Part shown: in pieces, positions 1 through 13,784 of the stretch
Layout of the letters: the number at the start of each line of letters is the position of its first letter
Numbering within the stretch: position 1 is the first letter of the stretch
Assembly (NCBI RefSeq): GCF_020662265.1
Contig: NZ_VEWM01000080.1
Span: 1 to 64,000 of the forward strand
DNA from: Psychrobacter sp. I-STPA6b
Lineage (GTDB): Bacteria > Pseudomonadota > Gammaproteobacteria > Pseudomonadales > Moraxellaceae
DNA: 64,000 bases
Direction of reading: 5' to 3'
Position numbers and translations under genes: made by a program
The notes under the pieces: generated by a model
Seen by the model: only the letters and a program-made list of their open reading frames with translations
Databases searched by the model: none
Told to the model about the DNA's origin: nothing

Positions 1-60
1 GACTAAACTGATCGCTTCAAGCTTGAACTCTCGGCTATATCTTTTGCGTTTACTGGTCAT
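1..60 (-). CDS. IS3-family transposase OrfA, N-terminal fragment cut by window edge
   Basis: Read on the minus strand, an ATG at 58-60 opens a frame beginning MTSKRKRYSREFKLEAIS, the classic start of IS3-group OrfA proteins (basic N-terminus leading into a helix-turn-helix that binds the element's ends). An AAGGAG ribosome binding site lies just upstream of the ATG. Only 20 codons are inside the window, so completeness cannot be judged. The element lies directly downstream of the Rhs toxin/immunity pair and may mark the edge of that accessory island. Confidence 0.75.
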   Translation of the reverse strand, partial: MTSKRKRYSREFKLEAISLV

Positions 61-94
61 ACTGTTTCTCCTTTTTTACTGGTAGTATAACCTC

Positions 95-268
95 TTATTT
101 GTTGTCTAACTTTATTATGCCACTACAATCTTCACCATCTAATAAGGAAACTATCTCTTTAGCTTTTTCTAGGTCATATGTGTATAAAGGGTCTTCAAGT
201 GTCACCGTTATGCCCTGTGATGTAATATAATAATGCATTTCAAACATATCTTGATTTTGTTCTTGCAT
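95..268 (-). CDS. Small presumptive immunity protein for the adjacent Rhs toxin (57 aa)
   Basis: A 57-residue frame starts MQEQNQDMFEMHYYITS and ends IIKLDNK. It is acidic, lacks Cys pairs, signal peptide or membrane segment, and so should be cytoplasmic. Its GGAGG ribosome binding site overlaps the stop codon of the Rhs tip at 278-280, leaving nine bases between stop and start, an arrangement that suggests translational coupling. Position immediately 3' of a polymorphic toxin tip is where cognate immunity genes sit. I do not recognise the family; the immunity role is inferred from position, size and charge only. Confidence 0.65.
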   Translation of the reverse strand: MQEQNQDMFEMHYYITSQGITVTLEDPLYTYDLEKAKEIVSLLDGEDCSGIIKLDNK

Positions 269-277
269 GTTTTCCTC

Positions 278-1447
278 CTAATTAATCAGACCCCAAACAT
301 GTTGACAGGCGTCACAATAGTCTTTTCTTTTACCCAAGACTAAATATCCTGAATTTGGATTTTTATCTACTTCATAAGCCCATGTCCAACGAATATTTTT
401 AACTCTAGTACCACCAAATAACAATTTGTCAGTAGCTCGGAATTCAGCACATCTACCCACAGTACTTGTTCCTATACAATCCCCAATCTTAACACCCATT
501 TTGAGTGCATGTCCCCTCAATCTTGTTGAAGAGCTTCGATGTTGACCATTGAATGCTGCTACTCCTATCCCTTTCTTGTAATCAAATGCACCTGCTACAG
601 TGTAAACTTTATTACGCTTTCTATTTCTTGCTGAATTAGGTGTGGTAGCTACTAATAGTCTTATTTTTACATGTGCCTCGACAAATCCTTTTGCATAATT
701 ACAAAAATCATTTCTTTTACCTTTACAGTTTCTAAGAGCCGTCTTAAAATAGCGAAGACCTAAGCGGTTTGCTATTGCCATACCACCTGCTGCTGAAGAG
801 GTACTACCACTTCCAATACCCAAAACCCTAGCTGCTGCTGAGCCACCATGTGAGAGCCCCCTTATGGCAGCTGAGGATAAATTTGCTCTTATGTTAAGTC
901 CACTCATCACACTCCCCAAGCTCATATGCCCACTCGGGTCAATATTCATCACAGGGTTAGCGTCAGCATACAAATACTTATTTAACGTTGTTGGATTACT
1001 GGCTTTACCCTGCCACGTATCCATCTGCGTAAACCTGCCCACGCCCTGATTATAATATCTGGCTCTTAAGTAATACTGATTTAGACTTCTATCGTATTGT
1101 TCTCCTGTATATAGATAAATATTATCGGTATTGCCTGTTTTGGTAGTGATTTCACCATAAACATCATACTGATAGCTATCTGTGATTTGTCCAGCCTGAT
1201 TGGTTAAAAACTTAGTTGAACCTAAACCATCATAACCAAAGTAGCTGGTATTGCCATTCACATTTTGGCTGATTAAATCATCGCCATAGCTGTAGCTGGC
1301 TACAGGGGTGTTGTTCTGCTCCTCTAATATGACTTGAGCGTAAGAGCGGTTTTTGTCCGTAACACAATCAATAGTTACGCCATTTTTTGATTTGGCATTA
1401 CGGATACCATCAATATCATAGCCAAAGGATACATCATTAGCTTGCAC
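278..1447 (-). CDS. Truncated Rhs tip with C-terminal predicted deaminase toxin domain
   Basis: The first ~165 residues are the last YD-repeats and hyperconserved end of an Rhs core (YYLRARYYNQGVGRFTQ near residue 125), closing at the DPSGH junction at 170-174. The variable tip (~175-389) has C333-A334-E335 followed by C378-D-A-C381. That matches the zinc-binding signature of the cytidine-deaminase-like fold (H/C-A-E, then CxxC) used by YwqJ-like and related toxin deaminases. If active it would deaminate a base in the target cell. The predicted start is GTG; the frame can be read up to a TAA near 1495, so the N-terminal secretion shell and most of the core are missing. Thus this is a displaced orphan tip, not a complete Rhs protein. 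Rhs assignment is firm; the deaminase assignment is motif-based. Confidence 0.8.
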   Translation of the reverse strand: MQANDVSFGYDIDGIRNAKSKNGVTIDCVTDKNRSYAQVILEEQNNTPVASYSYGDDLISQNVNGNTSYFGYDGLGSTKFLTNQAGQITDSYQYDVYGEITTKTGNTDNIYLYTGEQYDRSLNQYYLRARYYNQGVGRFTQMDTWQGKASNPTTLNKYLYADANPVMNIDPSGHMSLGSVMSGLNIRANLSSAAIRGLSHGGSAAARVLGIGSGSTSSAAGGMAIANRLGLRYFKTALRNCKGKRNDFCNYAKGFVEAHVKIRLLVATTPNSARNRKRNKVYTVAGAFDYKKGIGVAAFNGQHRSSSTRLRGHALKMGVKIGDCIGTSTVGRCAEFRATDKLLFGGTRVKNIRWTWAYEVDKNPNSGYLVLGKRKDYCDACQHVWGLIN

Positions 1448-1505
1448 AAGCTCATTTCTGGCATTATAGCTATAGTTTGAATTTTTGAATGATTAAACAT
1501 TTGTG

Positions 1506-1955
1506 TTAATTTAAGCCTACTATGTTTCCATCTTTGTCATAAACAAATTCTAAAAAATCACGAAAATCTATGACATCTAACGGCTCATATATTGGTAGCC
1601 CTGTAGTTTTTAATAGTTCTGCTCCACATTTTCTTAGATTAGTCCAATCCTCACCATTGTAAAACCCTTCAGCATCCATTCTAAAATTACCGTATGTCAA
1701 TAAACGATGAAATTCTTTATAAACTTCAAAGTCACTATCTGACTCAAAATCAAAGTGGTCATAAAAAGCATCTTGAAACTTTTCCAGTGTGTTTAAAAAT
1801 TGTACTAAATGATTACCACATTCATCTTTATTAGAGTTAATACCACCAATGATTCGTTCTTGTTCAATAGGAGGCAAAGTTAAAACACTTAACAACATCC
1901 ACAAAAAATCACCAGCATCTTCATAATGTACATATGCTACAGAATATGTTTTCAT
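1506..1955 (-). CDS. Orphan immunity-like protein (~150 aa)
   Basis: Acidic soluble protein starting MKTYSVAYVHYEDAGDF, family not recognised. Three in-frame ATGs exist (1976, 1967, 1955); 1955 is preferred because GGTGAGG lies ~12 bases upstream, whereas the others have no usable ribosome binding site. The gene start overlaps the end of a broken toxin tail (tail stop at 1970-1972), so in the original module it was the gene directly downstream of a toxin. It is now an immunity gene whose toxin is dead. Function inferred from context. Confidence 0.6.
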   Translation of the reverse strand: MKTYSVAYVHYEDAGDFLWMLLSVLTLPPIEQERIIGGINSNKDECGNHLVQFLNTLEKFQDAFYDHFDFESDSDFEVYKEFHRLLTYGNFRMDAEGFYNGEDWTNLRKCGAELLKTTGLPIYEPLDVIDFRDFLEFVYDKDGNIVGLN

Positions 1956-1969
1956 TTTATACTTCATCC

Positions 1970-2420
1970 TCACCATTTATTGACATGATAGTGTAAGTTT
2001 CCATCTACCCAATATGATAATTCATCTCCCTTGACTCCATCAGAACCCCCATGACCTTCACGTGCTTCATGATAATCCATTCTCACTAATTGACGATTCA
2101 CTATCCCTTTGGTGCCTTTGGTTTACACGCCAATACCAAACAATGAACCATATACTTCCTCTTTTTTTGCACCAAATACAATTTTAACTGGGACTTTTTT
2201 ATTTCCCCAACTTACCTTGGCAGATGTTTGTATAGTGTTTTGCATATTTATACCAAAAGTCAAAGGCATATATACTAAAAAACCAGTAACTCTAACGCTT
2301 CTTTTAGAGAGGTCTTCAGACCAATTACCTAATCCTGTACCAATTGCTATAGGAAAATTAATACTTGCACTTTGAATTGCTTCCGCACTTAGTTGAACCT
2401 AAACTATCATAATCCAAAAC
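1970..2420 (-). pseudogene. Decayed Rhs toxin tip (core scrap plus interrupted toxin tail)
   Basis: On the minus strand, 2420 to ~2385 encodes YDSLGSTK, matching YDGLGSTK in the intact Rhs tip (residues 72-79; DNA near 1209-1235). The frame then shifts into a ~75-residue stretch (AIQSASINFPIAIGTG ... SLFGIGV) ending in TAA, and continues in the same frame with TKGTKGIVNRQLVRMDYHEA to a natural end at HYHVNKW-stop. The TAA is probably a point mutation of a lysine codon. The short core piece joined out of frame implies an internal deletion. The H-rich tail looks like a nuclease-type toxin end, but I cannot name the family. Confidence 0.6.
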
Positions 2421-2444
2421 ATTGTATATCTATATCACATTTAT

Positions 2445-2861
2445 TTATATAGGATCTACCCAAAAGAATAACTTAGCCAAATTTGAACTGTATATAAAAA
2501 TTATCAACTCGTCATAGTCATCTTCTAGGATATAAACTTCCTCATATCCGTCTAATTTAAAATTATCAACATCTAACTGTTTGTTCCCTATTGTTATTAC
2601 AGAATAAGGATAAATTTTAATCCGATTGATTATTACTGATATTTTTTTATAAAACTCATCTATATTGATTTCTTTATAAATAAAAGCTCTCCTTTCTTCA
2701 TTAAATAAAGCCTTATTTTTTTGATTATATTCCAATTCATTAGCTTGAAACCAAACTACCTCTAAGCTTTTATCAAAGCTCAAGTTATTATGGCTTTGCT
2801 CAATCCATAGTATATCGCCATAACCTTCATCTTGAGTCTTATATTCAAGCTCTATATTCAT
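2445..2861 (-). CDS. Acidic hypothetical protein, immunity-like
   Basis: A 138-residue acidic protein starting MNIELEYKTQDEGYG, with an alternating beta-type pattern and a D/E-rich patch (YILEDDYDELIIFIYSS) near the C-terminus. No signal peptide or membrane helix. It lies in the row of minus-strand orphan genes downstream of Rhs fragments. Very low GC, codon use and size match its neighbours and differ from the core genes after 8 kb. Not recognised as a named family; immunity function is a contextual inference. Confidence 0.55.
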   Translation of the reverse strand: MNIELEYKTQDEGYGDILWIEQSHNNLSFDKSLEVVWFQANELEYNQKNKALFNEERRAFIYKEINIDEFYKKISVIINRIKIYPYSVITIGNKQLDVDNFKLDGYEEVYILEDDYDELIIFIYSSNLAKLFFWVDPI

Positions 2862-3038
2862 ATTTATTTACCGTATCGGATAACCTTGCAACATAATCCC
2901 ATTTTAACATAGTATTGAATCTTGTAAGGTCTAATATATGCTGAAAAAACCGTAGCTAAAACCAGAAAGGGATTAGAATATCTTAGAAATTGCTATTATA
3001 AGATAATTTCCTTCTACAAATGGCTTGTTATTAAATAC

Positions 3039-3671
3039 TTAACTCATTCTAATAGAATATATCAATTTTTTTATAAATGGTAAATAATATTTACAAAAAA
3101 TCCTGTCAATATCTTTAAGTACAGGTTTGATGATAGTATGGACTTGCCAATCTTCAATACTATCTATAAAGAATATCTCTTCGAATAACTCCCAAGTCTT
3201 TATCATTTCAGGTGAAAAATTAAGTTTAGTGACACCATGTTTCTTAGCACTTTCATAATTGAAACTATATTCATTAGTTAATAATGATGTCATTAGCTCT
3301 TTGGTTGGCTCCATTATTTCTGAAGAAGTATTTGTACAACCCTCAAAATCGCATTTATATAGCGTTATGCCAATATAATTAGAGTTAATACAGCTTAAGT
3401 TACCGTTTAAGTCTACATTAAAGTTATTTTCACACTCATTTGCAAACTTTATCTCTTTGGCAGATGTTCTGATATAAGGAATAATATAGTTTCTATTTTT
3501 TACGAAGCGAATACCGAAATAGACATAAAGATTCACCTTACTATCTTTATAGATAGAAATAGAGTATGCTGAGCCTTTATTTTTCCAGTTATCTAATATT
3601 TCTATATTATAGTTATCTTGAAGTATATTAAGAGTTTCTATTAATATCATTTTTTCAAATTGTTTTAACAT
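3039..3671 (-). CDS. Hypothetical protein in immunity array (210 aa)
   Basis: Soluble, strongly AT-rich gene starting MLKQFEKMILIETLNILQDN. It has a beta-rich middle (KVNLYVYFGIRFVKNRNY) and four Cys residues (two in CDFEGC). No membrane segment apart from a weakly hydrophobic end. Family not recognised. Its position among orphan immunity-like genes between Rhs scraps is the only clue to a role; it could instead be cargo of the island. Confidence 0.5.
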   Translation of the reverse strand: MLKQFEKMILIETLNILQDNYNIEILDNWKNKGSAYSISIYKDSKVNLYVYFGIRFVKNRNYIIPYIRTSAKEIKFANECENNFNVDLNGNLSCINSNYIGITLYKCDFEGCTNTSSEIMEPTKELMTSLLTNEYSFNYESAKKHGVTKLNFSPEMIKTWELFEEIFFIDSIEDWQVHTIIKPVLKDIDRIFCKYYLPFIKKLIYSIRMS

Positions 3672-3761
3672 TCATTATAATTCTATATATTTTTAGCAAA
3701 AACTTTAGAATATTGCCTAGCAAACAAAATATCTTCTTTAAATTTACTAGAACCTATTATT

Positions 3762-4280
3762 TTATAATCGCAAATCTTCAGCTTCTATATTAAACCGACG
3801 TTTTAACATTATTTTCCAGTACTCTACTGCTACTGTTTCAAGATCCTCAAAAATTATTGAAAATTCATTTTCAGGCATTACTTTATTTGCTAAATATCTA
3901 TTCCTTGTTAATCGACCATGTAAACGCTCTAAAGATACCATCATATAATTTCTTTGAAATTCTTCTGTAGGTTGATTTTCTCTATAATAGTCCAACCAGT
4001 AACCACAAAAGTTAAACTCATTCATCTCAGGGTCTCTCAAAGGTAAAGAATCGCTCCATCCTACAGATACTCCATACTCTCCTCTTGTATAGGCTATATT
4101 AAAGAAAACAACTAGATTTGTTTCTTTATAAAACCTTTTCAAATAAACAAAATCTGTAAGTTTTGGCAACTTAACATACAAGCTAGGCGTATTTGTCAAA
4201 CTCCAACCAGAGTAATTCTGTAAAAAATTATCTTTTAAATTTGCAAGTCTATTGGTGGCATCTGCCTTATTTAATATCAT
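3762..4280 (-). CDS. Hypothetical protein in immunity array (172 aa)
   Basis: Starts MILNKADATNRLANLKDNF with GAGGG about 8 bases upstream, a good ribosome binding site. The middle (ETNLVVFFNIAYTRGEYGVSV) suggests a beta sheet and the C-terminal third is helical and charged. Soluble, family not recognised. It follows the array pattern of single small minus-strand genes with 50-200 bp gaps. Immunity role inferred. Confidence 0.5.
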   Translation of the reverse strand: MILNKADATNRLANLKDNFLQNYSGWSLTNTPSLYVKLPKLTDFVYLKRFYKETNLVVFFNIAYTRGEYGVSVGWSDSLPLRDPEMNEFNFCGYWLDYYRENQPTEEFQRNYMMVSLERLHGRLTRNRYLANKVMPENEFSIIFEDLETVAVEYWKIMLKRRFNIEAEDLRL

Positions 4281-4495
4281 TATATAGCCCTCATAAAAAA
4301 ATCATCTAAAAACATTAAATCTCAATGTTAATTATAATCTCGACTCATTAACCCTACTTGAAAAACCAATCTTGTCATTTTTTGAACAATGATTTTGCTG
4401 TGCTCCATTCAAGTTAGCTGGTTTTTGGGGTTATAGTCTAAAAAGGAGAACTATCAAGCTAACGAATATTTTTAATTCTATTCAATAAAATATTG

Positions 4496-5296
4496 CTAAA
4501 AATTATCTATAACTTTATCCAAAATATTGATATCCTTATTATTCTTAACTAAATATAGCTTAAACCTATCAGAATAAGTCAATGACTCAATCATTTTTTC
4601 TTTGTTATTTTTCACAAAAGTTTCACTTTCAGAATGATTTATCTTTATCTCTGTACTTCCTACATAAGGTACTAGCTCGCAATCTACAAAATCTAAGATA
4701 ATAGCACCTTCTTCTTTTGTGATATTATTTGAGCAATCTTTTTGATATAAATACCAAAAGAGTAGAGTCTCTTTACCTATAATCATATCTATTAGATTCA
4801 AAATATTTATAACACCATCTGTATGATATTTATCTAATAGATAGGATTGTATTTTTTTATGAAAGTAAGTGTATCTTTTGTTTTTTATTCGGTGTTTGGT
4901 GGTAATACACCCCCGTTTATTACTATAGCTTTCTTCAAATTCTAGTGATGAAAACCACCCCAAATCATATCGTTTATTTTCCCGCAACTTCCCTTTAAAT
5001 CCATCAAAATTTATTTCATCTTGAATATATTCTTCATATTCTTTTTTAGCAAGTACTGATAGTTGAGGTATGACTTTAGAGATTTTTTCTGTTCCACGAA
5101 TTAAATTTTTATCATGCTTTTTTAGTATTAACCTTAGCCAATAACTCAAATCAATAACATCTGACAAACCCGCCATATGACCATGGTAATCTATATACAT
5201 TTGACCTATATTATCCAGTATGTGAAACACATAATCGCTGTTATCATCACTTCTATCAATACATATAAGCTCACAATAATCTACTAAAATTGCCAT
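4496..5296 (-). CDS. Immunity-like protein following a deleted Rhs toxin (266 aa)
   Basis: Starts MAILVDYCELICIDRSDDNS with AAGGATC upstream of the ATG. Predominantly helical, soluble, many Lys/Asp; no recognised motif. Directly upstream (5297-5457) lies an Rhs-core scrap and then a short open tail (GTAYAKVVSKIKI-stop), so the gene sits where the immunity gene of that lost toxin would be. At 266 residues it is the largest gene in the array. Function is inferred; an unrelated cargo role remains possible. Confidence 0.55.
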   Translation of the reverse strand: MAILVDYCELICIDRSDDNSDYVFHILDNIGQMYIDYHGHMAGLSDVIDLSYWLRLILKKHDKNLIRGTEKISKVIPQLSVLAKKEYEEYIQDEINFDGFKGKLRENKRYDLGWFSSLEFEESYSNKRGCITTKHRIKNKRYTYFHKKIQSYLLDKYHTDGVINILNLIDMIIGKETLLFWYLYQKDCSNNITKEEGAIILDFVDCELVPYVGSTEIKINHSESETFVKNNKEKMIESLTYSDRFKLYLVKNNKDINILDKVIDNF

Positions 5297-5457
5297 AATT
5301 TAAGATCCTTCGTGTTTATATCTTAATTTTAGACACAACTTTGGCATAAGCAGTTCCTGTAACTTGTACTGCCATTGATATTTTGACTGTTTAAGTCATC
5401 ACCATAGCTATAACTGGCTACAAGGATTTCATTTTATTTCTCTAGCAATAATGAAAG
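5297..5457 (-). pseudogene. Rhs-core scrap with residual toxin tail
   Basis: Minus-strand translation of about 5370-5457 gives VILLEK, a stop, then VASYSYGDDLNSQNINGSTS. This aligns with VILEEQ...VASYSYGDDLISQNVNGNTS of the Rhs tip (residues 39-68, DNA 1245-1335). It then leaves the core and, in another frame, reads VTGTAYAKVVSKIKI-stop just before the next gene. This is what remains when an Rhs tip loses nearly all of its toxin domain by deletion. Confidence 0.65.
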
Positions 5458-5460
5458 TTA

Positions 5461-5769
5461 TCAAGGCGTACCATATTTTAAATCATAAGGTTTAAATCCA
5501 AATTTTTCTGGTCTAACTGAAAATTCATCAATTTTATCTATTAGAAATTTTTGTTTATTTTCATTGACAAATTCAAACTCGTATTTTATTTCTACTACAT
5601 TAATACTAATCGCAACTTGAATGCTATTCAAATATATAGTTATAGTATCGTTGTCATCTTCTAAAATATGGCAAAGCTTTATAATATATTCCAGTTCATT
5701 TTCTTGTATATGTTTAGTAGTAGATAAACTACTATTTCTTTCTGAAAAAAACTTCACTATGTATTTCAT
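5461..5769 (-). CDS. Small immunity-like protein (102 aa)
   Basis: Starts MKYIVKFFSERNSSLSTTKH; acidic middle (CHILEDDNDTITIYLNSIQV) with predicted beta strands; no signal or membrane helix. Its stop codon abuts the Rhs-core scrap at 5457, so a recombination joint probably lies right behind the gene. Family not recognised; role inferred from the array. Confidence 0.5.
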   Translation of the reverse strand: MKYIVKFFSERNSSLSTTKHIQENELEYIIKLCHILEDDNDTITIYLNSIQVAISINVVEIKYEFEFVNENKQKFLIDKIDEFSVRPEKFGFKPYDLKYGTP

Positions 5770-5834
5770 GGTAAAAAATACACACTATCACAGATTCTAC
5801 GAGAGGGGAAAATCATAGTTAGAAGTGGTATTAG

Positions 5835-6305
5835 TCAACACTTAAACCATGATTTCGGTAGTGTTTCTAGGTTTGAAATATCATAATCAGTAAGATAACT
5901 ATCAATAGTTTTTTTATTCTCAAAAACATCTAAAAGGCTATTGCTATAATATTCTAATATGGTATCACCAGCTCCTATATCTAAAAAATAGACTGGAGAA
6001 ATGATAGATTTATCTTTATATAAGATAATAAAAAGAAATTGTGAATTATAATCACATACAGGAAATAAAGCCTCTGGCCATTGAGTATTCATTTGGCAAG
6101 ACTGTTCAATAAATTCTTTATATATATAAACTGCCTCTGTAATAGGCAAAATTGATTGTTCAATGAGTAAAAACTTACCTTCATTGATAAATTTCTTATC
6201 ATAATCCATGCCCAATATAAATTCTTTATATTGATAGTATATTTCTGGTAATACAAAAGGATTTATCAAGGATTCACATTGTTCAAAACAATCCATATTA
6301 TTCAT
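5835..6305 (-). CDS. Possible SMI1/KNR4 (SUKH)-like immunity protein
   Basis: A 156-residue acidic protein starting MNNMDCFEQCESLINPF, with AGGAAT upstream of the first ATG. The pattern 'LFPVCDYNSQFLFIILY...FLDIGAGD' followed by a helix with an N-S-L-L-D-V-F-E run is reminiscent of SUKH-superfamily immunity proteins. The resemblance is weak and not verified by alignment. Position in the Rhs-associated array supports an immunity role. Confidence 0.5.
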   Translation of the reverse strand: MNNMDCFEQCESLINPFVLPEIYYQYKEFILGMDYDKKFINEGKFLLIEQSILPITEAVYIYKEFIEQSCQMNTQWPEALFPVCDYNSQFLFIILYKDKSIISPVYFLDIGAGDTILEYYSNSLLDVFENKKTIDSYLTDYDISNLETLPKSWFKC

Positions 6306-6341
6306 ATTAACATTCCTATTATCTTAAACATACCAATCCAT

Positions 6342-6830
6342 TTAAAAAACATCTTGTCTATTATAAATCGGTGCTGGGTACATATAATCTGGCAGACATA
6401 TCTCAATCGGTCTTTTTAAACCAACAGGATACAACTCAACCTCTAACAATCCATCTGTTGCTAATTTTCTTACATACTGCCATTTTTTGCTATTTTTTAA
6501 TTCATTTGGCTCAAACATTAAGACATCTATCTCTAAAAATGGTTTATATATACCTTCAAATATAAACGAACATAATTCTTCAAGTGACCCAGCAAATTTA
6601 TTATTTGTAGTAGGAATGGATTTCATATGTGGAAAAAAGTCAGAAAAAGTATTGTATAAAAACATTTTAACAAGCTGTAGAATATAGTTACCTTCATCTG
6701 ACAACCTATCATAAAAATGACCATAATCATAAGATGGTTTACCAATCATTTGCTTTTGCTCTGGATAACCCATACTAAAAAAAGTAATAATTTTCCATAT
6801 CTCCGAGTATTTCATTCTTTGATTAAACAT
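6342..6830 (-). CDS. Hypothetical protein in immunity array (162 aa)
   Basis: Starts MFNQRMKYSEIWKIITFFSM. Soluble, aromatic-rich, ends with a Pro/Tyr-rich stretch (LPDYMYPAPIYNRQDVF). No recognised domain. It lies 46 bases downstream of the next array gene and 36 bases upstream of the SUKH-like gene, so these three may be co-transcribed. Immunity role inferred. Confidence 0.5.
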   Translation of the reverse strand: MFNQRMKYSEIWKIITFFSMGYPEQKQMIGKPSYDYGHFYDRLSDEGNYILQLVKMFLYNTFSDFFPHMKSIPTTNNKFAGSLEELCSFIFEGIYKPFLEIDVLMFEPNELKNSKKWQYVRKLATDGLLEVELYPVGLKRPIEICLPDYMYPAPIYNRQDVF

Positions 6831-6876
6831 TTCATCAACTCAATTTTATATAACTCAATATTATTAAGAAGTCAGT

Positions 6877-7125
6877 CTAAGCTCCATTTTTTTCAAAGCC
6901 ATATTTTTCTAGATTCTCAATATAGTCGTCTATGTTATCTAGCATATCTATAACTTCTTCAAGTGTGCATTCTTTATAATAGTAAGGCAGAGGTAAACTA
7001 ATATCTACCAAAAAACTATAAGGCTGTTTTTCTATAGTAATATATTGTGGTATACCTGTACATATTAGCTTATTTAGTCCTGAGTATATGCCTTTATATC
7101 TTTTTTTAGGTCGGGTATCTATCAT
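6877..7125 (-). CDS. Small acidic immunity-like protein (82 aa)
   Basis: Starts MIDTRPKKRYKGIYSGLNK and ends with an acidic helix (EEVIDMLDNIDDYIENLEKY). The basic N-terminus with acidic C-terminus and small size fit a protein inhibitor. It is the first gene of the array in the direction of transcription. Family not recognised. Confidence 0.5.
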   Translation of the reverse strand: MIDTRPKKRYKGIYSGLNKLICTGIPQYITIEKQPYSFLVDISLPLPYYYKECTLEEVIDMLDNIDDYIENLEKYGFEKNGA

Positions 7126-8085
7126 CTAAAGTAGACTTTGAAACATTATATTCCAGAGATAATAAAATTTCATCAGATTCTAGAAATCTCTAAATCACTG
7201 TCAGGTATTTTTTTAATAAATTATTTTGATGGATATAATTGATAAATACTATGATATCACCATAGTATTCATTGTAATAACTCAATAATTTATAAAAACA
7301 TCCAAATATTATTCATGATTACAGATTGTAACCTTAACGCTATATATTGGTGCATAAAATAAACCCATATAAATAATCCTATATTGGTAACTTAGAGATA
7401 GCAACGGCGTCAACTGAGTCATCAACCTCAAAATACTTATTTAACCTATTGGACTACTGGTTTTATATTATAAATCCATCTGTACAAACCTATCACTTTA
7501 ATAAATAAGCCACCTGCATTCATTGCCTTGATTAAGTCACTGTTTGTTAAAATCAGCTTCTCAATTTTTCTATAAATATGAATGTTCAACAAGCTTTAGT
7601 AGCATCATTTAAATATTACTTATTTAATTTTTTATCTAAAAAGCCCGATATGAGTTAACATCTGTTTTTTTCTTCGGCAAGCCCCAGCCTTATACTTTCC
7701 AGTCAACACACAAGCCGTTTGCCCAGCATGATTGTGATAGGATATATTGCTTGTGCAAGGACGCATGGTATGTATGTTTTATTTAGCCTTCAGCCTTACT
7801 TTATGACTACATAACTACTGATAACCTTATATGAACTTATAAGGATAAGTCATCAATATGATGTGTCACCATATACTGACTATGTCCTCTAAATATTGTA
7901 GTGACACACTGCTAACTGGATTTAAAAAACTGTATTCAAAAGTAGAATAAAGCATGATACTAACAACGAAAAATCCTGTAATCCATGACAATAAACAATA
8001 GCAAATAATGATAAATGATTCACCTACTCATTAATATCTGGCTTTAGACACTTTTTATCCACTTTATGTTTTAGATGGTATCCAT
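7126..8085. other. Gene-free gap between immunity array and TolC gene
   Basis: No frame with a credible start, composition and ribosome binding site was found. The part 7425-7497 is a decayed Rhs-core scrap (listed separately). The last ~400 bases should contain the promoter of the tolC-like gene, but no convincing -35/-10 pair was identified. The remainder is very AT-rich and may be decayed toxin or immunity DNA. Confidence 0.5.
7425..7497 (-). pseudogene. Rhs-core scrap
   Basis: The DNA around AAATACTTATTTAAC and CCATCTG, with matching spacing, parallels the intact Rhs tip at 965-1035. That segment encodes the conserved R-F-T-Q-M-D-T-W ... L-N-K-Y-L-Y core end. Here the minus-strand reading contains stops (R-F-V-Q-M-D-L-stop). 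It is a small non-functional remnant marking the upstream limit of the island. Confidence 0.6.
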
Positions 8086-9816
8086 ATGACCTCAACGCAT
8101 CACTCATCCAAAAGCACCCATATTCAGGCAGTATCTTATTTGTTGCTTGGGATATCAGTCATTCCAAGCATACCAACTGCATTGGCAAACACAGAAGCGC
8201 CAGCAGCTCAAGCTACAGATACAATGATTACCTCTGTAACCATTGATGAGACACCAGTGTCTCAGTATGTAGAGACAACCTCCACTGAAACAATACGCTT
8301 AGCACCACAAGCAAACAACATACAAAACAATCTTCAAAGTAGCATACAAAGTAATATTCAAAGTGGTGAGCAAAATGACGTGCAAAGCGTTGCGTTACAG
8401 ACTTATATCGACCCAAAATCAGGTATGGTTATAGATGATACATACGCACTGGATGTGCCAAGTCTGCTTAGCCTAGACCAAGCTCAACGAGTACTAACAC
8501 AAGTGTCACCAAAGATGGCTGCCAATAATGCTGCCATTGCTGCCAGTGAGCTTCGTGCCGAAGCAACAGAGTCTTTAAAGCAGCCGATGGTGTTTTTAAA
8601 TGCCTCGGCCACACACTATGATATCAATCATGATGTGAGCTTATCTCAGCTCAAGTCTGGCATTCATGATGGTATCAATCAAGGTATTAACAATCTAGGC
8701 TTAGGAACGCTGCCACCAAGTATTGACCCTTCATCTATCATTACCAATCACATTCCTGATAATTATGAGTTTCATCGTGAGGGTAACAATACTCGTGCAG
8801 GCGTTGCTGTTGTCTGGCCAGTCTATACTGCTGGACGTACAGATGCCATTACAGGATTTGTTGATGCACGCACTCAAGAGGCTCAAGCTGATGCTTTGTT
8901 AGATGGTAATACGCTATACACGACCTTAGTACAGCGCTATTTTAATGCCCAGCTTGCCATTATTGCTGCATATTTGCGTGACGATGCACTACGCACTATC
9001 CAAGAGACTGACCACATGGCACAGCGCCTATTAGATGAAGGTTTTATCTCGACAGTAGAGCGACTAGAAGCAAAGTCCGCCCTTGCTGAAGCACAAAGTG
9101 AGGCCATCAAAGCACGCAATGATGCCAGACTTGCTATGACAGCATTACAAAGTTTATTGCGTACCCCTACACCCATTAAACCAACAACGCCACTATTTGT
9201 ATATACCAGACCACTACCAGAGTTAGCCTACTTTCAAGATTTGGCATTAAAAAATCACCCTGGACTTAAAAAAGTCGATGCGAAATATCAGCAGGCCTCT
9301 CAGATAAGAGCATTTTCAGATACTGGCTTTAAACCTACCATTAATATTTTTGGTTATCATGAGATTGATAAAAATCCTAGTTGGGTTGCTGGAGTATCAG
9401 CAAACTGGAAGCTATGGGGCGGTTTAAATAAAAGTGCACAACTGGCGGCTGGCGATGCCTCTTTGCGACAAGCACAGCTTAGTAAGCTTGATGTGAGTGA
9501 TAATATCCTACTATTGGTCGAAAAAAACTGGCAAGCCGTTGATAATGCTCGTGTCCGCTTTTTATCATTAGGCAGCAATGAGCAACTCACTGCTGAAGTG
9601 CTACGTCTAAAACAACTTGGATTGCAAGAAGGGGTAAATACTGCCATTGACGTTGCACAAGCACAGACTAAATACCTAAAAGCACGCACAGAAAGAGCAG
9701 CAGCAGCGAATGATTATGTTCAAGCTCTTGCCAACCTAATGGAAAGCTGTGGTACACCTTTGGCATTTAATGACTATATGAATCAAGCAGATGTACGTTT
9801 ACCACAGTTATATTAG
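8086..9816 (+). CDS. TolC-family outer membrane efflux/export channel
   Basis: A 576-residue precursor with an N-terminal hydrophobic signal (about residues 16-35, ending near ALA-NTE), then a Gln/Asn-rich linker to ~120. The outer-membrane efflux protein fold follows as two long helical repeats (AQRVLTQVSPKMAANNAA near 130; SALAEAQSEAIKARNDAR near 335; AIDVAQAQTKYLKARTER near 525). Such proteins trimerise into a channel spanning the outer membrane and periplasm. The adaptor and two permease genes directly downstream on the same strand (gap 213 bases) indicate a dedicated export system. The Q/N-rich linker is longer than in E. coli TolC. Confidence 0.88.
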   Translation: MTSTHHSSKSTHIQAVSYLLLGISVIPSIPTALANTEAPAAQATDTMITSVTIDETPVSQYVETTSTETIRLAPQANNIQNNLQSSIQSNIQSGEQNDVQSVALQTYIDPKSGMVIDDTYALDVPSLLSLDQAQRVLTQVSPKMAANNAAIAASELRAEATESLKQPMVFLNASATHYDINHDVSLSQLKSGIHDGINQGINNLGLGTLPPSIDPSSIITNHIPDNYEFHREGNNTRAGVAVVWPVYTAGRTDAITGFVDARTQEAQADALLDGNTLYTTLVQRYFNAQLAIIAAYLRDDALRTIQETDHMAQRLLDEGFISTVERLEAKSALAEAQSEAIKARNDARLAMTALQSLLRTPTPIKPTTPLFVYTRPLPELAYFQDLALKNHPGLKKVDAKYQQASQIRAFSDTGFKPTINIFGYHEIDKNPSWVAGVSANWKLWGGLNKSAQLAAGDASLRQAQLSKLDVSDNILLLVEKNWQAVDNARVRFLSLGSNEQLTAEVLRLKQLGLQEGVNTAIDVAQAQTKYLKARTERAAAANDYVQALANLMESCGTPLAFNDYMNQADVRLPQLY

Positions 9817-9850
9817 AAGCAACTATATTAGAAACAGCTATATTAGAAAT
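9809..9850 (+). repeat. Three tandem 15-bp units across the tolC-like stop codon
   Basis: TATATTAGAA starts at 9809, 9824 and 9839, an exact 15-bp period with variable 5-bp spacers. The stop codon TAG (9814-9816) lies inside the first unit. Because the period is a multiple of three, the repeats put a TAG in the same frame three times. Confidence 0.8.
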
Positions 9851-10029
9851 GGTTAAAAAGGTTTCAGTGGTTACTGATGCTGAAACTGACAGCGAATAGA
9901 GATTTATCAAATATTTTACACACATTGAGCATCAATACACTGCAATAACCTGCCTAAAATTGATGATACAACATTGATGGCATAACAGCTTATTGTAGAT
10001 AAAAGATATTATTTTAAAGGATAAACAGT

Positions 10030-11085
10030 ATGACCCCATCGACCACAGTAAAAATAAGAAAACTGGTCATTATCTTACTGGTAATCAGCGCACTCGGCTT
10101 TATCTTTTATGGTCTGAAAAAAAGTCACGATAGCAATGATGAACCCATCACTCTACAAGGACAGATGGAAATGCAGACCACTGCCATCGCCTCCAAAGTT
10201 GCTGGACGTGTTGCCAAAGTCTTTGTCACTGAAGGTGATTTTGTAGAAGTTGGTGAGCAGCTTATCGAAATGGACTCACCAGAAATCACCGCAAAAATGA
10301 ATCAAGCATTGGCAGCCAGAGAAGCCGCTCAAAGCCAGCTTGATAAAGCAGAGGCAGGCGCACGCCCCCAAGAAGTTGCGCAAGCAAAAGCGGGCTGGCA
10401 AGCACATCAAGCTGCTGCTGAGCTTGCCCAAAGTACCTATGAACGTGTCAATCGTCTTTATAATGAAGGCTTGATGGCTCGTCAAAAACGTGATGAAGCG
10501 TATACACAATATATTGCCCAACATGAGCAAGCTGAAGCTGCCCGCCAACAGTATAACTTAGCACTAGAGGGTGCAAGGTCTGAGGACAAACAAGCAGCAG
10601 CAGCACAGGTGGCACAAGTCGATGCCAAAATCGAAGAAGCGCAAGTGGCTCAAGATGAAGCAAACTTAAAAAGTCCCATTGCAGGTATTGTGGATGATGT
10701 CATCATCAATGCTGGTGAAGTTGTTGGTCAAGGTGTACCGCTGATGACCTTAGTAAACCCTGAGCAGCAGTGGGTCGTATTAAATGTCACCGAAAACTAC
10801 CTTAATCAATTTGGCATTGGACAGCATTTTACTGGGCATATCCCTGCTCTATCAACACCTGAGCGTCCTTATCAACAAGAGTTTGTGGTCTATGCCAGCT
10901 CTATGCTTTCAGACTTTGCCACATGGCGTGCAACCAATAGTGAAGATGGATTTGATGTGCGTACCTTTGAAATCAAAGCACGTCCAACCACACCAAATAA
11001 AAATATCCGTGCTGGTATGAGTGTAACCATCAAGGTAGACCCCAATCTTTCTAACGCTAACCCTTCTGGTGTCAGCCATAACTAG
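10030..11085 (+). CDS. HlyD/EmrA-type membrane fusion protein
   Basis: Periplasmic adaptor of 351 residues, linking inner-membrane permeases to the TolC-like channel. One N-terminal membrane anchor (~9-27, IRKLVIILLVISALGFIFYG); first half of the lipoyl domain (~55-88, AGRVAKVFVTEGDFVEVGEQ); a long Ala/Gln-rich coiled-coil hairpin (~90-205); second lipoyl half (LKSPIAGIVDDVIINAGEVV); then a beta barrel. An AAAGGA ribosome binding site precedes the ATG. It lies 33 bases before the first permease, so the genes probably form an operon. Confidence 0.9.
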   Translation: MTPSTTVKIRKLVIILLVISALGFIFYGLKKSHDSNDEPITLQGQMEMQTTAIASKVAGRVAKVFVTEGDFVEVGEQLIEMDSPEITAKMNQALAAREAAQSQLDKAEAGARPQEVAQAKAGWQAHQAAAELAQSTYERVNRLYNEGLMARQKRDEAYTQYIAQHEQAEAARQQYNLALEGARSEDKQAAAAQVAQVDAKIEEAQVAQDEANLKSPIAGIVDDVIINAGEVVGQGVPLMTLVNPEQQWVVLNVTENYLNQFGIGQHFTGHIPALSTPERPYQQEFVVYASSMLSDFATWRATNSEDGFDVRTFEIKARPTTPNKNIRAGMSVTIKVDPNLSNANPSGVSHN

Positions 11086-11118
11086 CCCATAAGAGCAGAC
11101 AGACGAAGAGCGCCTACC

Positions 11119-12600
11119 ATGACTTTAGACGATACTTTGCGTACAAAGACCAAACGCCCCTACTCTCAAGATAGCGCCCCAGGCAATATCTTTCAACGGA
11201 TGGCTCAGGCCTTCTGGCGTAGCGCACGCTACGAGGGGAATTTTTTACGCCATAATCGCTGGGATTTTAGCGTTCTATTTTGGATACCACTTGCTGTTAT
11301 CGTGCTGGTCTGGTGGATTTTTTCACGCCCATTTATTGTTAATCTACCCATTGGAATGATTAATGATAGCCATAATAGCTATTCGCAAACCTTAATCCGC
11401 TATCTTGATGCCAGCCCAGACCTAGCAGTGACACAGATATTTAAAAATAGCAATGAGGCAAATGATGCTTTATTACGCCAGCAGGTCTATGCGGTCGTCA
11501 TTATTCCCAGAGATTTTGGTGAAAAAATCAACCAAGCTCAAGCCTCTCCTGTATTATTAGAGGTTAACGCCCAATTTGGCTCACATTCTGGTATTATTCA
11601 GCGTGGGGTACAATCCGCAGTTGGAACATTTTCCGCTGGGGTGGAGATTAAACGTAGCATCAAACAAGGTAGTAACCCAAGCCAAGCCAAAATAGACTAC
11701 TCTCCCATTTCCATTCAACGAGTTAGCCTATTTAATGCAGGCAGTAATTATCAGCTATTTTTAGCCTCTACTGTCTTACCAGCTCTACTTCATATATTGG
11801 CAATGGTTGTTGGAGCAACTACAATAGGACGAGAAATACGTGACTGCACCTTTGCTGATTGGTGTCAGTTACTCACTGCCAAAACTTATACCAATACTCA
11901 TACTCCAGCAAACGAAAATTCATTAACATCAATCCACTTTCCATCATTTGCACAACAAACATTTGTTGCAACGCCGCATTCAAATGTTGGTAGCACAGGC
12001 AATGGCTATACCCTAGAACATCGCTTAGCACCCCCTCAGCACTTGCTCAATACATCAACCAAGCAAGCCACACAACCCATGCAGTCCAAACAGCACTCCC
12101 CTTCACTACTGATACTGATAGCAGGTCTTCATGGTAAATATCTGTGGGCAATATTGGCATATGCTCTATGGGGTGCCGTTGCCTTAACACTGGCACTACA
12201 GCTTAACCATGCTAGTATTGGTGCATGGGCAGTCACTTATGTTGCCTATCTACTGCTATTATTACTGTCTATATGGCTGGGTGCAATTTTTAGTCTTGCT
12301 GGCTATTCACTGCGTATGGGGTTATCAATAACGGGCTTTGTCTCTGCACCATCCTATGCCTTTGCAGGGGTCGCTTATCCTTATATTGCCATATCCGATA
12401 GTGCTAAATATTGGGCAGATGCCTTGCCATTAACCCATTATCTTAAACTTCATATTGGCTTATTACAGATGCATGCACCACTTGATACATACCGTGGTAT
12501 TTTATATGGTTTATTAATTGCCACATTGGTTTCGATGCTACTTACTGCATTGTTATGCAAGCGAGCATGGGCGCATCCTGAGCGCTGGGGGGCACGCTAA
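11119..12600 (+). CDS. ABC-2 type transporter permease with unusual cytoplasmic insert
   Basis: A 493-residue inner-membrane permease of the YbhS/YbhR/YhhJ type: one N-terminal helix (~50-68), a large periplasmic domain (~70-210), then a membrane bundle (214-235, 338-360, 369-396, 400-425, 461-480). Between the second and third helices is a hydrophilic, Thr/Gln/His-rich insert of ~80 residues (about 250-328) not expected in the family. It follows the adaptor gene and its stop overlaps the next start (TAATG). No ATP-binding motif is present in this protein. Likely transports a substrate outward together with the next permease; substrate unknown. Confidence 0.85.
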   Translation: MTLDDTLRTKTKRPYSQDSAPGNIFQRMAQAFWRSARYEGNFLRHNRWDFSVLFWIPLAVIVLVWWIFSRPFIVNLPIGMINDSHNSYSQTLIRYLDASPDLAVTQIFKNSNEANDALLRQQVYAVVIIPRDFGEKINQAQASPVLLEVNAQFGSHSGIIQRGVQSAVGTFSAGVEIKRSIKQGSNPSQAKIDYSPISIQRVSLFNAGSNYQLFLASTVLPALLHILAMVVGATTIGREIRDCTFADWCQLLTAKTYTNTHTPANENSLTSIHFPSFAQQTFVATPHSNVGSTGNGYTLEHRLAPPQHLLNTSTKQATQPMQSKQHSPSLLILIAGLHGKYLWAILAYALWGAVALTLALQLNHASIGAWAVTYVAYLLLLLLSIWLGAIFSLAGYSLRMGLSITGFVSAPSYAFAGVAYPYIAISDSAKYWADALPLTHYLKLHIGLLQMHAPLDTYRGILYGLLIATLVSMLLTALLCKRAWAHPERWGAR

Positions 12601-13784
12601 TGACCCATCATCTTAATCATTCTCATAAGCAACACTCTCAGCAAGATAACTCACAAGGATTTTTAGAGAGCTTTTTAACCACTTTACGCTCAATATTTAC
12701 AGATAAGGGCGTTATCTTGATGTTGGTCATCGCTCCAATTATTTATGGTTTCTTTTATCCTTGGCCATATAATGACCAAATCATTGTAGATATTCCCGTT
12801 GGTATCGTGGACTATGATAATAGTAAACTGTCACATACCATTATGCGCTATAGCAGTAGTAGTCCTCGATTAGAGATTAAAACGTTTGATAATGAGCAAG
12901 CTGCAAAAGAGGCTCTATGGAATTATCAAATCGCTGGCTATTTAGTGATTCCCCCTGAGCTAGAAAAAAACGTCTATTCTGGACGACCTGCTCATGTCAG
13001 TATTTTGGGTAACGGGGGGTACTTTATACTCAATAAATATGTGCAAACAGGATTTACACAAGCAGTTGCGACCGTATCGGCAGGTATTGAGGTTAAGCGC
13101 CATGTAGCACATGGTGAGCGTATTGAGCATGCAAAAACAAATACCCAAGCAGTACCCTTGCGTATCGACCCGCTATACAACCCAATAGAAAGCTATGGTG
13201 TCTATATTGTACCTGCCGTTGCTATCTTGATTTTACAGCAAACCCTATTGATGGGTACTGCCATGCTGATTGGCACATGGGCAGAAAAACGCCAACAATA
13301 TGCTTCCTTGTTAGGTTGGCTTGGACGCATCTGTGCATTAAGCTTTATTGGTATTGTTATTGGTGCATTTTATTTTGGCTGGATATTTAACTTTCAAGGC
13401 TACCCTAGAGGGCATAATCCCATTGGGGCGATGGTCTTTTTAGTTATCTTTACCTTTGCTGTCTCTGCTTTGGGCTGTTTACTAGGGTTATGGTTTCGTC
13501 AACGTGAACGTAGCTTACAGATTCTGATTTTTAGCTCACTGCCCATCTTTTTTCTTAGTGGCTACCCGTGGCCAACTCAGCAACTACCAGAAGCACTACA
13601 GTATTTACGCTGGGTAATACCGACCTCTTCTGGTATGAATGCTTCTGTACAACTGAATCAAATGGGTGCTTCCTTGGTACAGGTCAGCCACTACCTATAT
13701 GCACTTGCCCTATTATTTATTGTTTATTTTTCACTATTAATCATTGTTGATAAACGACAAAAACGCAAACTTCATTCACCTTAA
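12600..13784 (+). CDS. ABC-2 type transporter permease
   Basis: Second permease, 394 residues, same architecture as its upstream partner: N-terminal helix ~37-54, periplasmic domain carrying the conserved F-x-Q-A-V-A-T-V-S-A-G-I-E-V motif near 145-165, and a five-helix C-terminal bundle from ~197. Its ATG overlaps the upstream stop (TAATG), so the two are translationally coupled and probably heterodimerise. The short N-terminus is His/Gln-rich. No ATPase gene follows; a terminator lies 30 bases downstream. Confidence 0.87.
   Translation: MTHHLNHSHKQHSQQDNSQGFLESFLTTLRSIFTDKGVILMLVIAPIIYGFFYPWPYNDQIIVDIPVGIVDYDNSKLSHTIMRYSSSSPRLEIKTFDNEQAAKEALWNYQIAGYLVIPPELEKNVYSGRPAHVSILGNGGYFILNKYVQTGFTQAVATVSAGIEVKRHVAHGERIEHAKTNTQAVPLRIDPLYNPIESYGVYIVPAVAILILQQTLLMGTAMLIGTWAEKRQQYASLLGWLGRICALSFIGIVIGAFYFGWIFNFQGYPRGHNPIGAMVFLVIFTFAVSALGCLLGLWFRQRERSLQILIFSSLPIFFLSGYPWPTQQLPEALQYLRWVIPTSSGMNASVQLNQMGASLVQVSHYLYALALLFIVYFSLLIIVDKRQKRKLHSP

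What the first reader, a model, noticed from the sequence alone, without database searches (positions are those of the whole stretch)
278..1447. Orphan Rhs tip with predicted CAE/CxxC deaminase toxin
The variable domain after the DPSGH junction carries C-A-E (333-335) and C-x-x-C (378-381), the metal-binding signature of deaminase-fold toxins. The usual His ligand is Cys, as in YwqJ-like and related groups. The carrier lacks almost all of the Rhs shell and has a stop codon just upstream, so it is a displaced tip. It may act only after recombination with a full-length rhs gene elsewhere.
Basis: partly seen in the sequence, partly recalled or inferred. Interest (0 to 1): 0.7.

Follow-up and report, generated by a model that had tools for sequence, protein, structure and literature searches.

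The report
Stranded deaminase toxin tip, immunity broken
A Psychrobacter chromosome keeps the loose end of a large antibacterial-type toxin gene, a distant relative of the YwqJ deaminase toxins, but its carrier gene was not found and the antidote gene beside it appears cut in two by a jumping element, so the weapon is probably silent.

Summary
The ORF 278-1447(-) is a displaced Rhs tip: 174 residues of Rhs core end joined to a 215-residue toxin domain with C333-A-E335 and C378-x-x-C381. Pfam and NCBIfam do not name the domain, but it has relatives: on a full-length 3177-residue Rhs protein in Hahella sp. CCB-MM4, on a displaced tip in Pseudoteredinibacter isoporae, and on a broken tip in Hahella sp. 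HN01. Their profile matches a YwqJ-deaminase (PF14431) profile in register through CAE and CxxC (hhalign 92%, E 6e-7 for one comparison; 100 column shuffles reached 5% at most). An AlphaFold model from four sequences (pLDDT 70) is closest to blasticidin-S and cytidine deaminases, at modest scores. The deaminase reading is supported, as a divergent branch outside PF14431's detection range. The gene 9 bases downstream is probably its immunity gene, cut after 47 codons by an IS element; a likely second piece lies at the end of contig C106. And no full-length rhs gene of this core clade was found in the draft assembly, so activation by recombination would need DNA from another strain. Activity, substrate and expression are untested.

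The parts
278..1447 (-). Displaced Rhs tip ORF, 389 codons, GTG as first possible start (true start uncertain)
1493..1495 (-). In-frame TAA that ends the upstream reading frame
926..1475 (-). Rhs core-end fragment, about 550 bp, 78.6% DNA identity to P. vallis; homology starts at 1475
   Evidence: TIGR03696 E 8.5e-19; blastn; 87-88% protein identity to P. aquaticus and P. vallis
281..925 (-). Variable toxin domain, residues 175-389; the modelled deaminase-like part is residues 240-389 (281-730)
443..451 (-). C333-A334-E335, predicted zinc ligand and catalytic Glu
305..316 (-). C378-x-x-C381, predicted zinc ligands
128..268 (-). First 47 codons of the probable immunity gene, cut by the IS element (the ORF reads on to 95 inside the IS)
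   Evidence: family assignment rests mainly on the other piece, on contig C106; this piece alone matches weakly, 16%
1..127 (-). Left end of an IS3-type element (inverted repeat and start of its first ORF); runs off the contig end
   Evidence: an rve-type transposase ORF at the C106 end, E 1.3e-24; IS3 naming recalled
6877..7125 (-). 5'-truncated copy of the immunity gene, 93% DNA identity to the C106 piece over 242 bp
1506..1976 (-). Unidentified 156-aa ORF directly upstream, possibly an orphan immunity gene of an older tip
   Evidence: no family above cut-off; inferred from position only
2000..2420 (-). Broken Rhs tip remnant with an in-frame stop; core match at 2387-2418 (94% over 32 bp)
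5359..5454 (-). Rhs core remnant, 66% protein identity over 32 residues
2445..6830 (-). Run of unidentified same-strand ORFs (2445-2861, 3039-3671, 3762-4280, 4496-5296, 5461-5769, 5835-6305, 6342-6830), possibly orphan immunity genes
   Evidence: 5835-6305 has a SUKH-1 match below cut-off, E 0.0095; otherwise inferred from position

Best explanation
This is a displaced C-terminal tip of an Rhs toxin of the Ig/cadherin-repeat kind, carrying a divergent YwqJ-like, zinc-dependent deaminase domain (predicted ligands C333, C378, C381; predicted catalytic E335). When joined to a full-length Rhs carrier, as in Hahella sp. CCB-MM4, the shell would export the domain, which would enter a neighbouring bacterium and deaminate a base in a nucleic acid or nucleotide. 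Here it is stranded: it was probably displaced by other tips, the carrier gene was not found, and an IS element cuts the probable immunity gene. Shown by computation: displaced-tip anatomy, homologues, conserved motifs, profile similarity to YwqJ deaminases, an IS end inside the neighbouring gene. Inferred: fold, zinc binding, catalysis, export, bacterial target, the join of contigs C52 and C106, silence.
For: Core end 87-88% identical to P. aquaticus and P. vallis tips that carry other toxin domains. Same domain on a full-length Rhs protein in Hahella CCB-MM4, 44% identity, CAE and CxxC kept; on a displaced tip in P. isoporae and a broken one in Hahella HN01. hhalign of the four-row family profile with four PF14431-matching proteins: 92.1%, E 6.3e-7, 96 columns covering the hairpin, CAE and CxxC; 100 column shuffles at most 4.94%, reversed profile 0.56%; the window domain alone scores 40.2 (85.6%), and 34 other tips at most 21.6. 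AlphaFold pTM 0.69; rows 1-25 of the 44 VIA-align rows shown are deaminases, Z 5.9 to 3.6. Immunity: the C106 piece matches the proteins encoded beside the P. isoporae and HN01 tips (89.7%, E 1.9e-6), while 7 of 8 other array ORFs score under 1%.
Against: No Pfam match at E up to 10 for the window, Hahella or P. isoporae domains, no NCBIfam match for the window and P. isoporae domains. The Hahella domain alone reaches only 40% over 28 columns against the YwqJ profile. Foldseek is weak: best E 0.42, with unrelated folds at 0.44; VIA Z of 5.9 is below 8 and comes from a second look at Foldseek's own list. Profile E-values are for a single comparison and rest on four sequences each. The immunity gene in Hahella CCB-MM4 is not recognisably related. 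One of 8 control ORFs (5461-5769) also matches the immunity profile, 31%. The GAT repeat that links C52 and C106 is weak evidence. No activity data exist.
Confidence: 0.76

Rival explanations
1. The domain has a deaminase-like fold and metal site but is no nucleic-acid deaminase: it acts on a small molecule, or has lost activity in this stranded copy.
For: B. subtilis YwqJ arrested growth without visible effect on chromosome or rRNA, and its authors suggest small-molecule targets (PMC8321402, passages read). The nearest solved fold here is blasticidin S deaminase, a small-molecule enzyme. The copy has no known carrier and an interrupted immunity gene.
Against: All predicted active-site residues are intact in this copy. 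Deaminase toxins of three other families change cytosines in DNA (PMC7901873, passages read).
Confidence: 0.3
2. The CAE and CxxC are a structural zinc knuckle or a coincidence, and the domain is another kind of toxin, such as a nuclease.
For: No curated deaminase model detects it; structure matches are modest.
Against: Profile match with PF14431 proteins in register over both motifs, far above shuffles and 34 other tips; motifs conserved in relatives; deaminases fill the top 25 rows of the VIA list; shuffles give the spacing in 10 of 20,000.
Confidence: 0.1
3. The tip is a live reserve weapon: it is expressed from the GTG at 1447 or can still be joined to a full-length rhs gene, as shown for an orphan Rhs toxin in Salmonella.
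For: The reading frame is intact and its GC (39-40%) matches 8086-64000 (40.1%), while 1506-7125 has 28.8%. The 550 bp core fragment is like the 522 bp, 95% identical stretch proposed for the Salmonella recombination (PMC3967940, abstract and passages read).
Against: No full-length rhs gene of this core clade in the draft assembly; the other rhs cores are 27-34% identical; the immunity gene is interrupted; promoter-like sites in 1-2500 (12, against 10.4 +/- 3.5 in shuffles) give no signal.
Confidence: 0.12

Closest known systems
YwqJ-like deaminase toxins (PF14431; Rhs, LXG and other polymorphic toxins)
   Same: CAE plus CxxC, hairpin before CAE, C-terminal tip position on Rhs proteins; profile match 92%; a PF14431 tip also lies in this genome on contig C74
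   Different: Below Pfam detection; 44-45 residues from CAE to CxxC, against 35 in the C74 tip; own conserved motifs TPNS and AAFNG
Blasticidin S deaminase and cytidine deaminases
   Same: Best structural matches, Z 5.9 to 3.6 in rows 1-25 (blasticidin S deaminase 2z3h: Z 5.9, rmsd 3.6, 96 residues); Cys as first zinc ligand (recalled)
   Different: 11-19% identity in the rows shown; metabolic or resistance enzymes, not Rhs-borne toxins (recalled)
Displaced (orphan) Rhs tips and immunity arrays
   Same: Core fragment plus exchangeable tip, strings of remnants, linked immunity genes (PMC2935791 passages; PMC3967940 abstract and passages; PMC5361080 abstract and start of introduction)
   Different: No main rhs gene at the locus or of this clade in the draft; immunity gene interrupted by an IS element
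DddA, SsdA and BaDTF3 deaminase toxins
   Same: Bacterial deaminase toxins (PMC7901873 passages); a P. syringae cytidine deaminase T6S toxin structure, 9c63, is listed at Z 4.7, rmsd 3.6, 104 residues
   Different: SsdA has His and Cys at the zinc site, here Cys is predicted in place of His; DddA is delivered by T6SS (abstract), here an exported Rhs carrier is inferred

Membership tests
PF14431 YwqJ-like deaminase | HMM match above the curated cut-off | tested here: not met
   No hit at E up to 10 for the window domain or two homologues; the genome search with PF14431 found the C74 tip but not this one
PF14431 YwqJ-like deaminase | Detectable relationship by profile-profile comparison | tested here: met
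   hhalign 92.1%, E 6.3e-7 for one comparison, with shuffle, reversal and other-tip controls
Deaminase superfamily | [HCD]xE then CxxC in order (motif as listed in PMC3482391, passages) | tested here: met
   Both motifs in the window domain and the two complete homologues
Deaminase superfamily | Deaminase fold | tested here: inconclusive
   Model pLDDT 69.8; best solved matches are deaminases at Z up to 5.9, below 8; Foldseek E 0.42
Deaminase superfamily | Zinc ligands and Glu clustered in space; activity | not testable with these tools
   Model coordinates are not given; no assay
Displaced Rhs tip (orphan rhs-CT) | Core fragment homologous to full-length rhs genes, then a non-homologous tip | tested here: met
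Displaced Rhs tip (orphan rhs-CT) | Linked immunity gene | tested here: inconclusive
   ORF 9 nt downstream, interrupted by an IS; the piece in the window matches the relatives' immunity profile weakly, 16%; the C106 piece matches at 89.7%, but that both belong to one gene is inferred
Displaced Rhs tip (orphan rhs-CT) | Full-length rhs gene of the same clade upstream | tested here: not met
   None at the locus or elsewhere in the assembly; the genome is a 142-contig draft
IS3-family element | rve-type transposase and terminal inverted repeats | tested here: met
   rve E 1.3e-24; the C52 left end and the C106 right end read as related inverted repeats (by eye); family naming recalled; the element is not in one contig here
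IS3-family element | 3-bp target repeat (recalled) | tested here: inconclusive
   GAT stands outside the C52 left end and the C106 right end; but the T is found before all four left ends with a visible flank and the A before three of the four, so it could be chance

The most novel reading that the evidence does not exclude
The domain founds a separate, rare deaminase toxin family with its own immunity family, seen so far in four genomes (Psychrobacter, two Hahella, Pseudoteredinibacter), whose substrate differs from that of known deaminase toxins and could be a base in DNA or RNA.
Probability: 0.35. Interest if true: 0.6.

Novelty: new variant of a known kind. Interest (0 to 1): 0.42.

Why it matters
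Deaminase toxins can mutate rival bacteria (PMC7901873, passages), and one has been made into a base editor (PMC11789416, title and start of abstract in the listing). The target of B. subtilis YwqJ was left open in the paper read (PMC8321402). A divergent branch with a candidate immunity family and a full-length carrier in Hahella can be tested directly. The locus also shows a toxin tip kept intact while no carrier is found and its immunity gene is interrupted, which fits the view that stranded tips are silent.

Tried and rejected
Single-sequence AlphaFold of the whole ORF: useless, pLDDT 33. Relatives of the toxin domain by single sequence: none confirmed in genome contigs or viral contigs, nor with profiles in viral contigs. 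Plasmid and phage tblastn at E up to 10 gave 41, 1, 3 and 4 records, best E 0.2; of these I fetched only H43 (the E 0.2 row), which shows no such domain.

Chance hits: 12 of the 13 genomes (read; the 13th is this genome); 2 of 3 (read); 3 of 4 (read); 1 of 2 (read). In one search, 6 of 33 genomes matched at E up to 0.1: three are real; the three at E 0.04-0.08 were dropped without reading because they cover only 38-39 profile positions. I gave 33 of 37 loci, leaving out L042, L043, L057 and L068 as further contigs of genomes already listed.

In one search I scored 35 of 37 tips; L054 and L063 were left out because the frame ends before a tip. P. isoporae's tip was not scored alone there.

The Hahella CCB-MM4 immunity gene as a relative: not supported. 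Foldseek against PDB: no match at E 0.001. The VIA list shows no DddA or MafB structure; that absence says nothing. Only one deaminase toxin family (YwqJ) was at hand for profile comparison, so a nearer family is not excluded. PADLOC gave nothing, PHROGs only a match at residues 111-185, mostly core end. A complete copy of the IS with both ends was not found: the C3 copy has a left end, but no matching right end was found within L073.

Full report
The finding is real. The ORF at 278-1447(-) has 389 codons from a GTG, in a frame open for 404 codons from a TAA at 1493-1495. Residues 94-174 match the Rhs core-end model TIGR03696 at E 8.5e-19.

The window is the start of a 337 kb contig, C52, of a 3.2 Mb, 142-contig draft. 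Two same-genus genomes hold the core on contigs that names Psychrobacter aquaticus and P. vallis (contig lengths 21,926 and 151,071), so the genus is Psychrobacter. The core itself is rare there: 3 of 105 genus genomes at E 1e-20.

It is a displaced tip. The core fragment (926-1475) is 79% identical in DNA to P. vallis and P. aquaticus and 87-88% in protein. In P. aquaticus the same core ends a 3425-residue ORF with bacterial Ig, cadherin-like and IgGFc-binding domains and RHS repeats, carrying a different toxin domain, with a further displaced tip downstream. In the window, homology stops at 1475, beside an unidentified 156-aa ORF. Further core remnants lie at 2387-2418, 5359-5454 and 7431-7465, among small same-strand ORFs. 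This is the tip-displacement picture of PMC2935791 (passages read) and resembles the immunity arrays of PMC5361080 (abstract and start of introduction read).

The toxin domain has no match in Pfam at E up to 10 and none in NCBIfam. It is rare: found in 1 of 105 genus genomes, this one; in 1 of 369 class genomes, again this one; and, once hits that proved chance on reading are set aside, in no further genome among 398 of the phylum and 390 of the order. Genomes that share the core clade did better: of 33 searched, three hold it: Hahella sp. CCB-MM4 on a full-length 3177-residue Rhs protein, Pseudoteredinibacter isoporae on a displaced tip, and Hahella sp. HN01 as a broken tip. The three complete domains share TPNS, an AAFNG turn, TVGRCAE-x-RA-xx-KLL and CxxC.

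Is it a deaminase? The genome offers a built-in yardstick: a search with PF14431 found one tip, on contig C74, and not this ORF. That tip and three plasmid relatives, all four matching PF14431, made a comparison profile. hhalign matched it to the new family at 92.1%, E 6.3e-7 for a single comparison, aligning the hairpin, CAE and CxxC. Of 100 column shuffles none passed 4.94%, and the reversed profile gave 0.56%. Against the same profile the window domain alone scored 40.2 (85.6%); the Hahella relative alone 30.2, but over only 28 columns (40%); the other 34 tips at most 21.6.

AlphaFold on four rows gave pLDDT 69.8 and pTM 0.69, with the order helix-strand-strand-helix-helix-strand-strand-strand-helix; residues 78-89, just before CAE at 94, are poorly defined. 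Foldseek against PDB is weak: blasticidin S deaminase leads at E 0.42, and unrelated folds follow at 0.44. VIA-align, a second look at the 1000 chains Foldseek ranks highest, puts deaminases in all of its first 25 rows and in 27 of the 44 rows shown; the best, blasticidin S deaminase, has Z 5.9, rmsd 3.6-3.9, 94-97 residues, and the first unrelated fold has Z 3.3. Z under 8 can reflect a common arrangement, so I call the fold likely, not shown. I could not inspect the metal site.

The neighbour at 95-268, 9 bases after the tip, is probably the immunity gene, and it is interrupted. Window bases 1-127 are the end of an IS element: 127-129 identical bases recur at the ends of contigs C106, C32 and C84, and a 91% copy lies in C3. 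The far end of contig C106 holds the right part of such an element, with an rve-type transposase. The C52 left end and the C106 right end read as related inverted repeats, and GAT stands outside both. That repeat is weak evidence, since the T precedes all four visible left ends and the A three of them. Stronger is what lies directly beyond the element on C106: a 94-residue piece that matches the proteins encoded beside the P. isoporae and Hahella HN01 tips (89.7%, E 1.9e-6), whereas 7 of 8 other array ORFs score under 1%; the eighth, 5461-5769, scores 31%. The 47-codon piece in the window matches the same profile weakly, 16%. A 93% identical copy of the C106 piece lies at 6877-7125. The Hahella CCB-MM4 immunity gene is not recognisably related. 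The contig join, and so the statement that the two pieces belong to one gene, is inferred.

Can it fire? In Salmonella an orphan Rhs toxin gained expression in evolved cells, by recombination with the main gene as the authors argue, the two sharing 522 bp at 95% identity (PMC3967940, abstract and passages read). Here the draft shows no full-length rhs gene of this clade. Apart from this ORF, the matches are short remnants on C106 and C52 and a different rhs type, 27-34% identical, on C74 and C121. Promoter-like sites in 1-2500 number 12, against 10.4 with sd 3.5 in shuffles. I infer that the tip is silent in this strain and could be revived only with DNA from outside.

What would it attack? 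Unknown. Deaminase toxins of three families changed cytosines in DNA (PMC7901873, passages read), while YwqJ of B. subtilis arrested growth without visible effect on chromosome or rRNA (PMC8321402, passages read). A search for papers with Psychrobacter, Rhs and toxin gave 3, none on this subject by title and start of abstract.

Noticed in passing
G000 contig C74, 57426-63656 and 68164-69186 (L004, L090): A second, different rhs locus: a 2076-codon gene with displaced tips behind it, one of them a PF14431 YwqJ-type deaminase tip, so this genome holds two deaminase-type tips of different branches.
   Followed up: partly
window 5461-5769(-): A 102-aa ORF matches the immunity profile of the relatives (31%, E 5e-4), so it may be another, older immunity gene of the same family.
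   Followed up: no
window 1506-7125: This stretch has 28.8% GC, against 39-40% for the tip and 40.1% for 8086-64000.
   Followed up: no
window 7498-7591 and L027 8131-8226: Besides the duplicated immunity piece, C52 and the end of C106 share an 86% identical stretch of 96 bp, hinting at an old duplication around the locus.
   Followed up: no
window 5835-6305(-): ORF with a SUKH-1 match below the cut-off (E 0.0095), a common immunity fold.
   Followed up: no
window 8086-13784 and L027 5806-7437: If C52 and C106 join as inferred, the array lies between an efflux-type operon and a glycerol-kinase-like gene (names recalled from the sequences).
   Followed up: no
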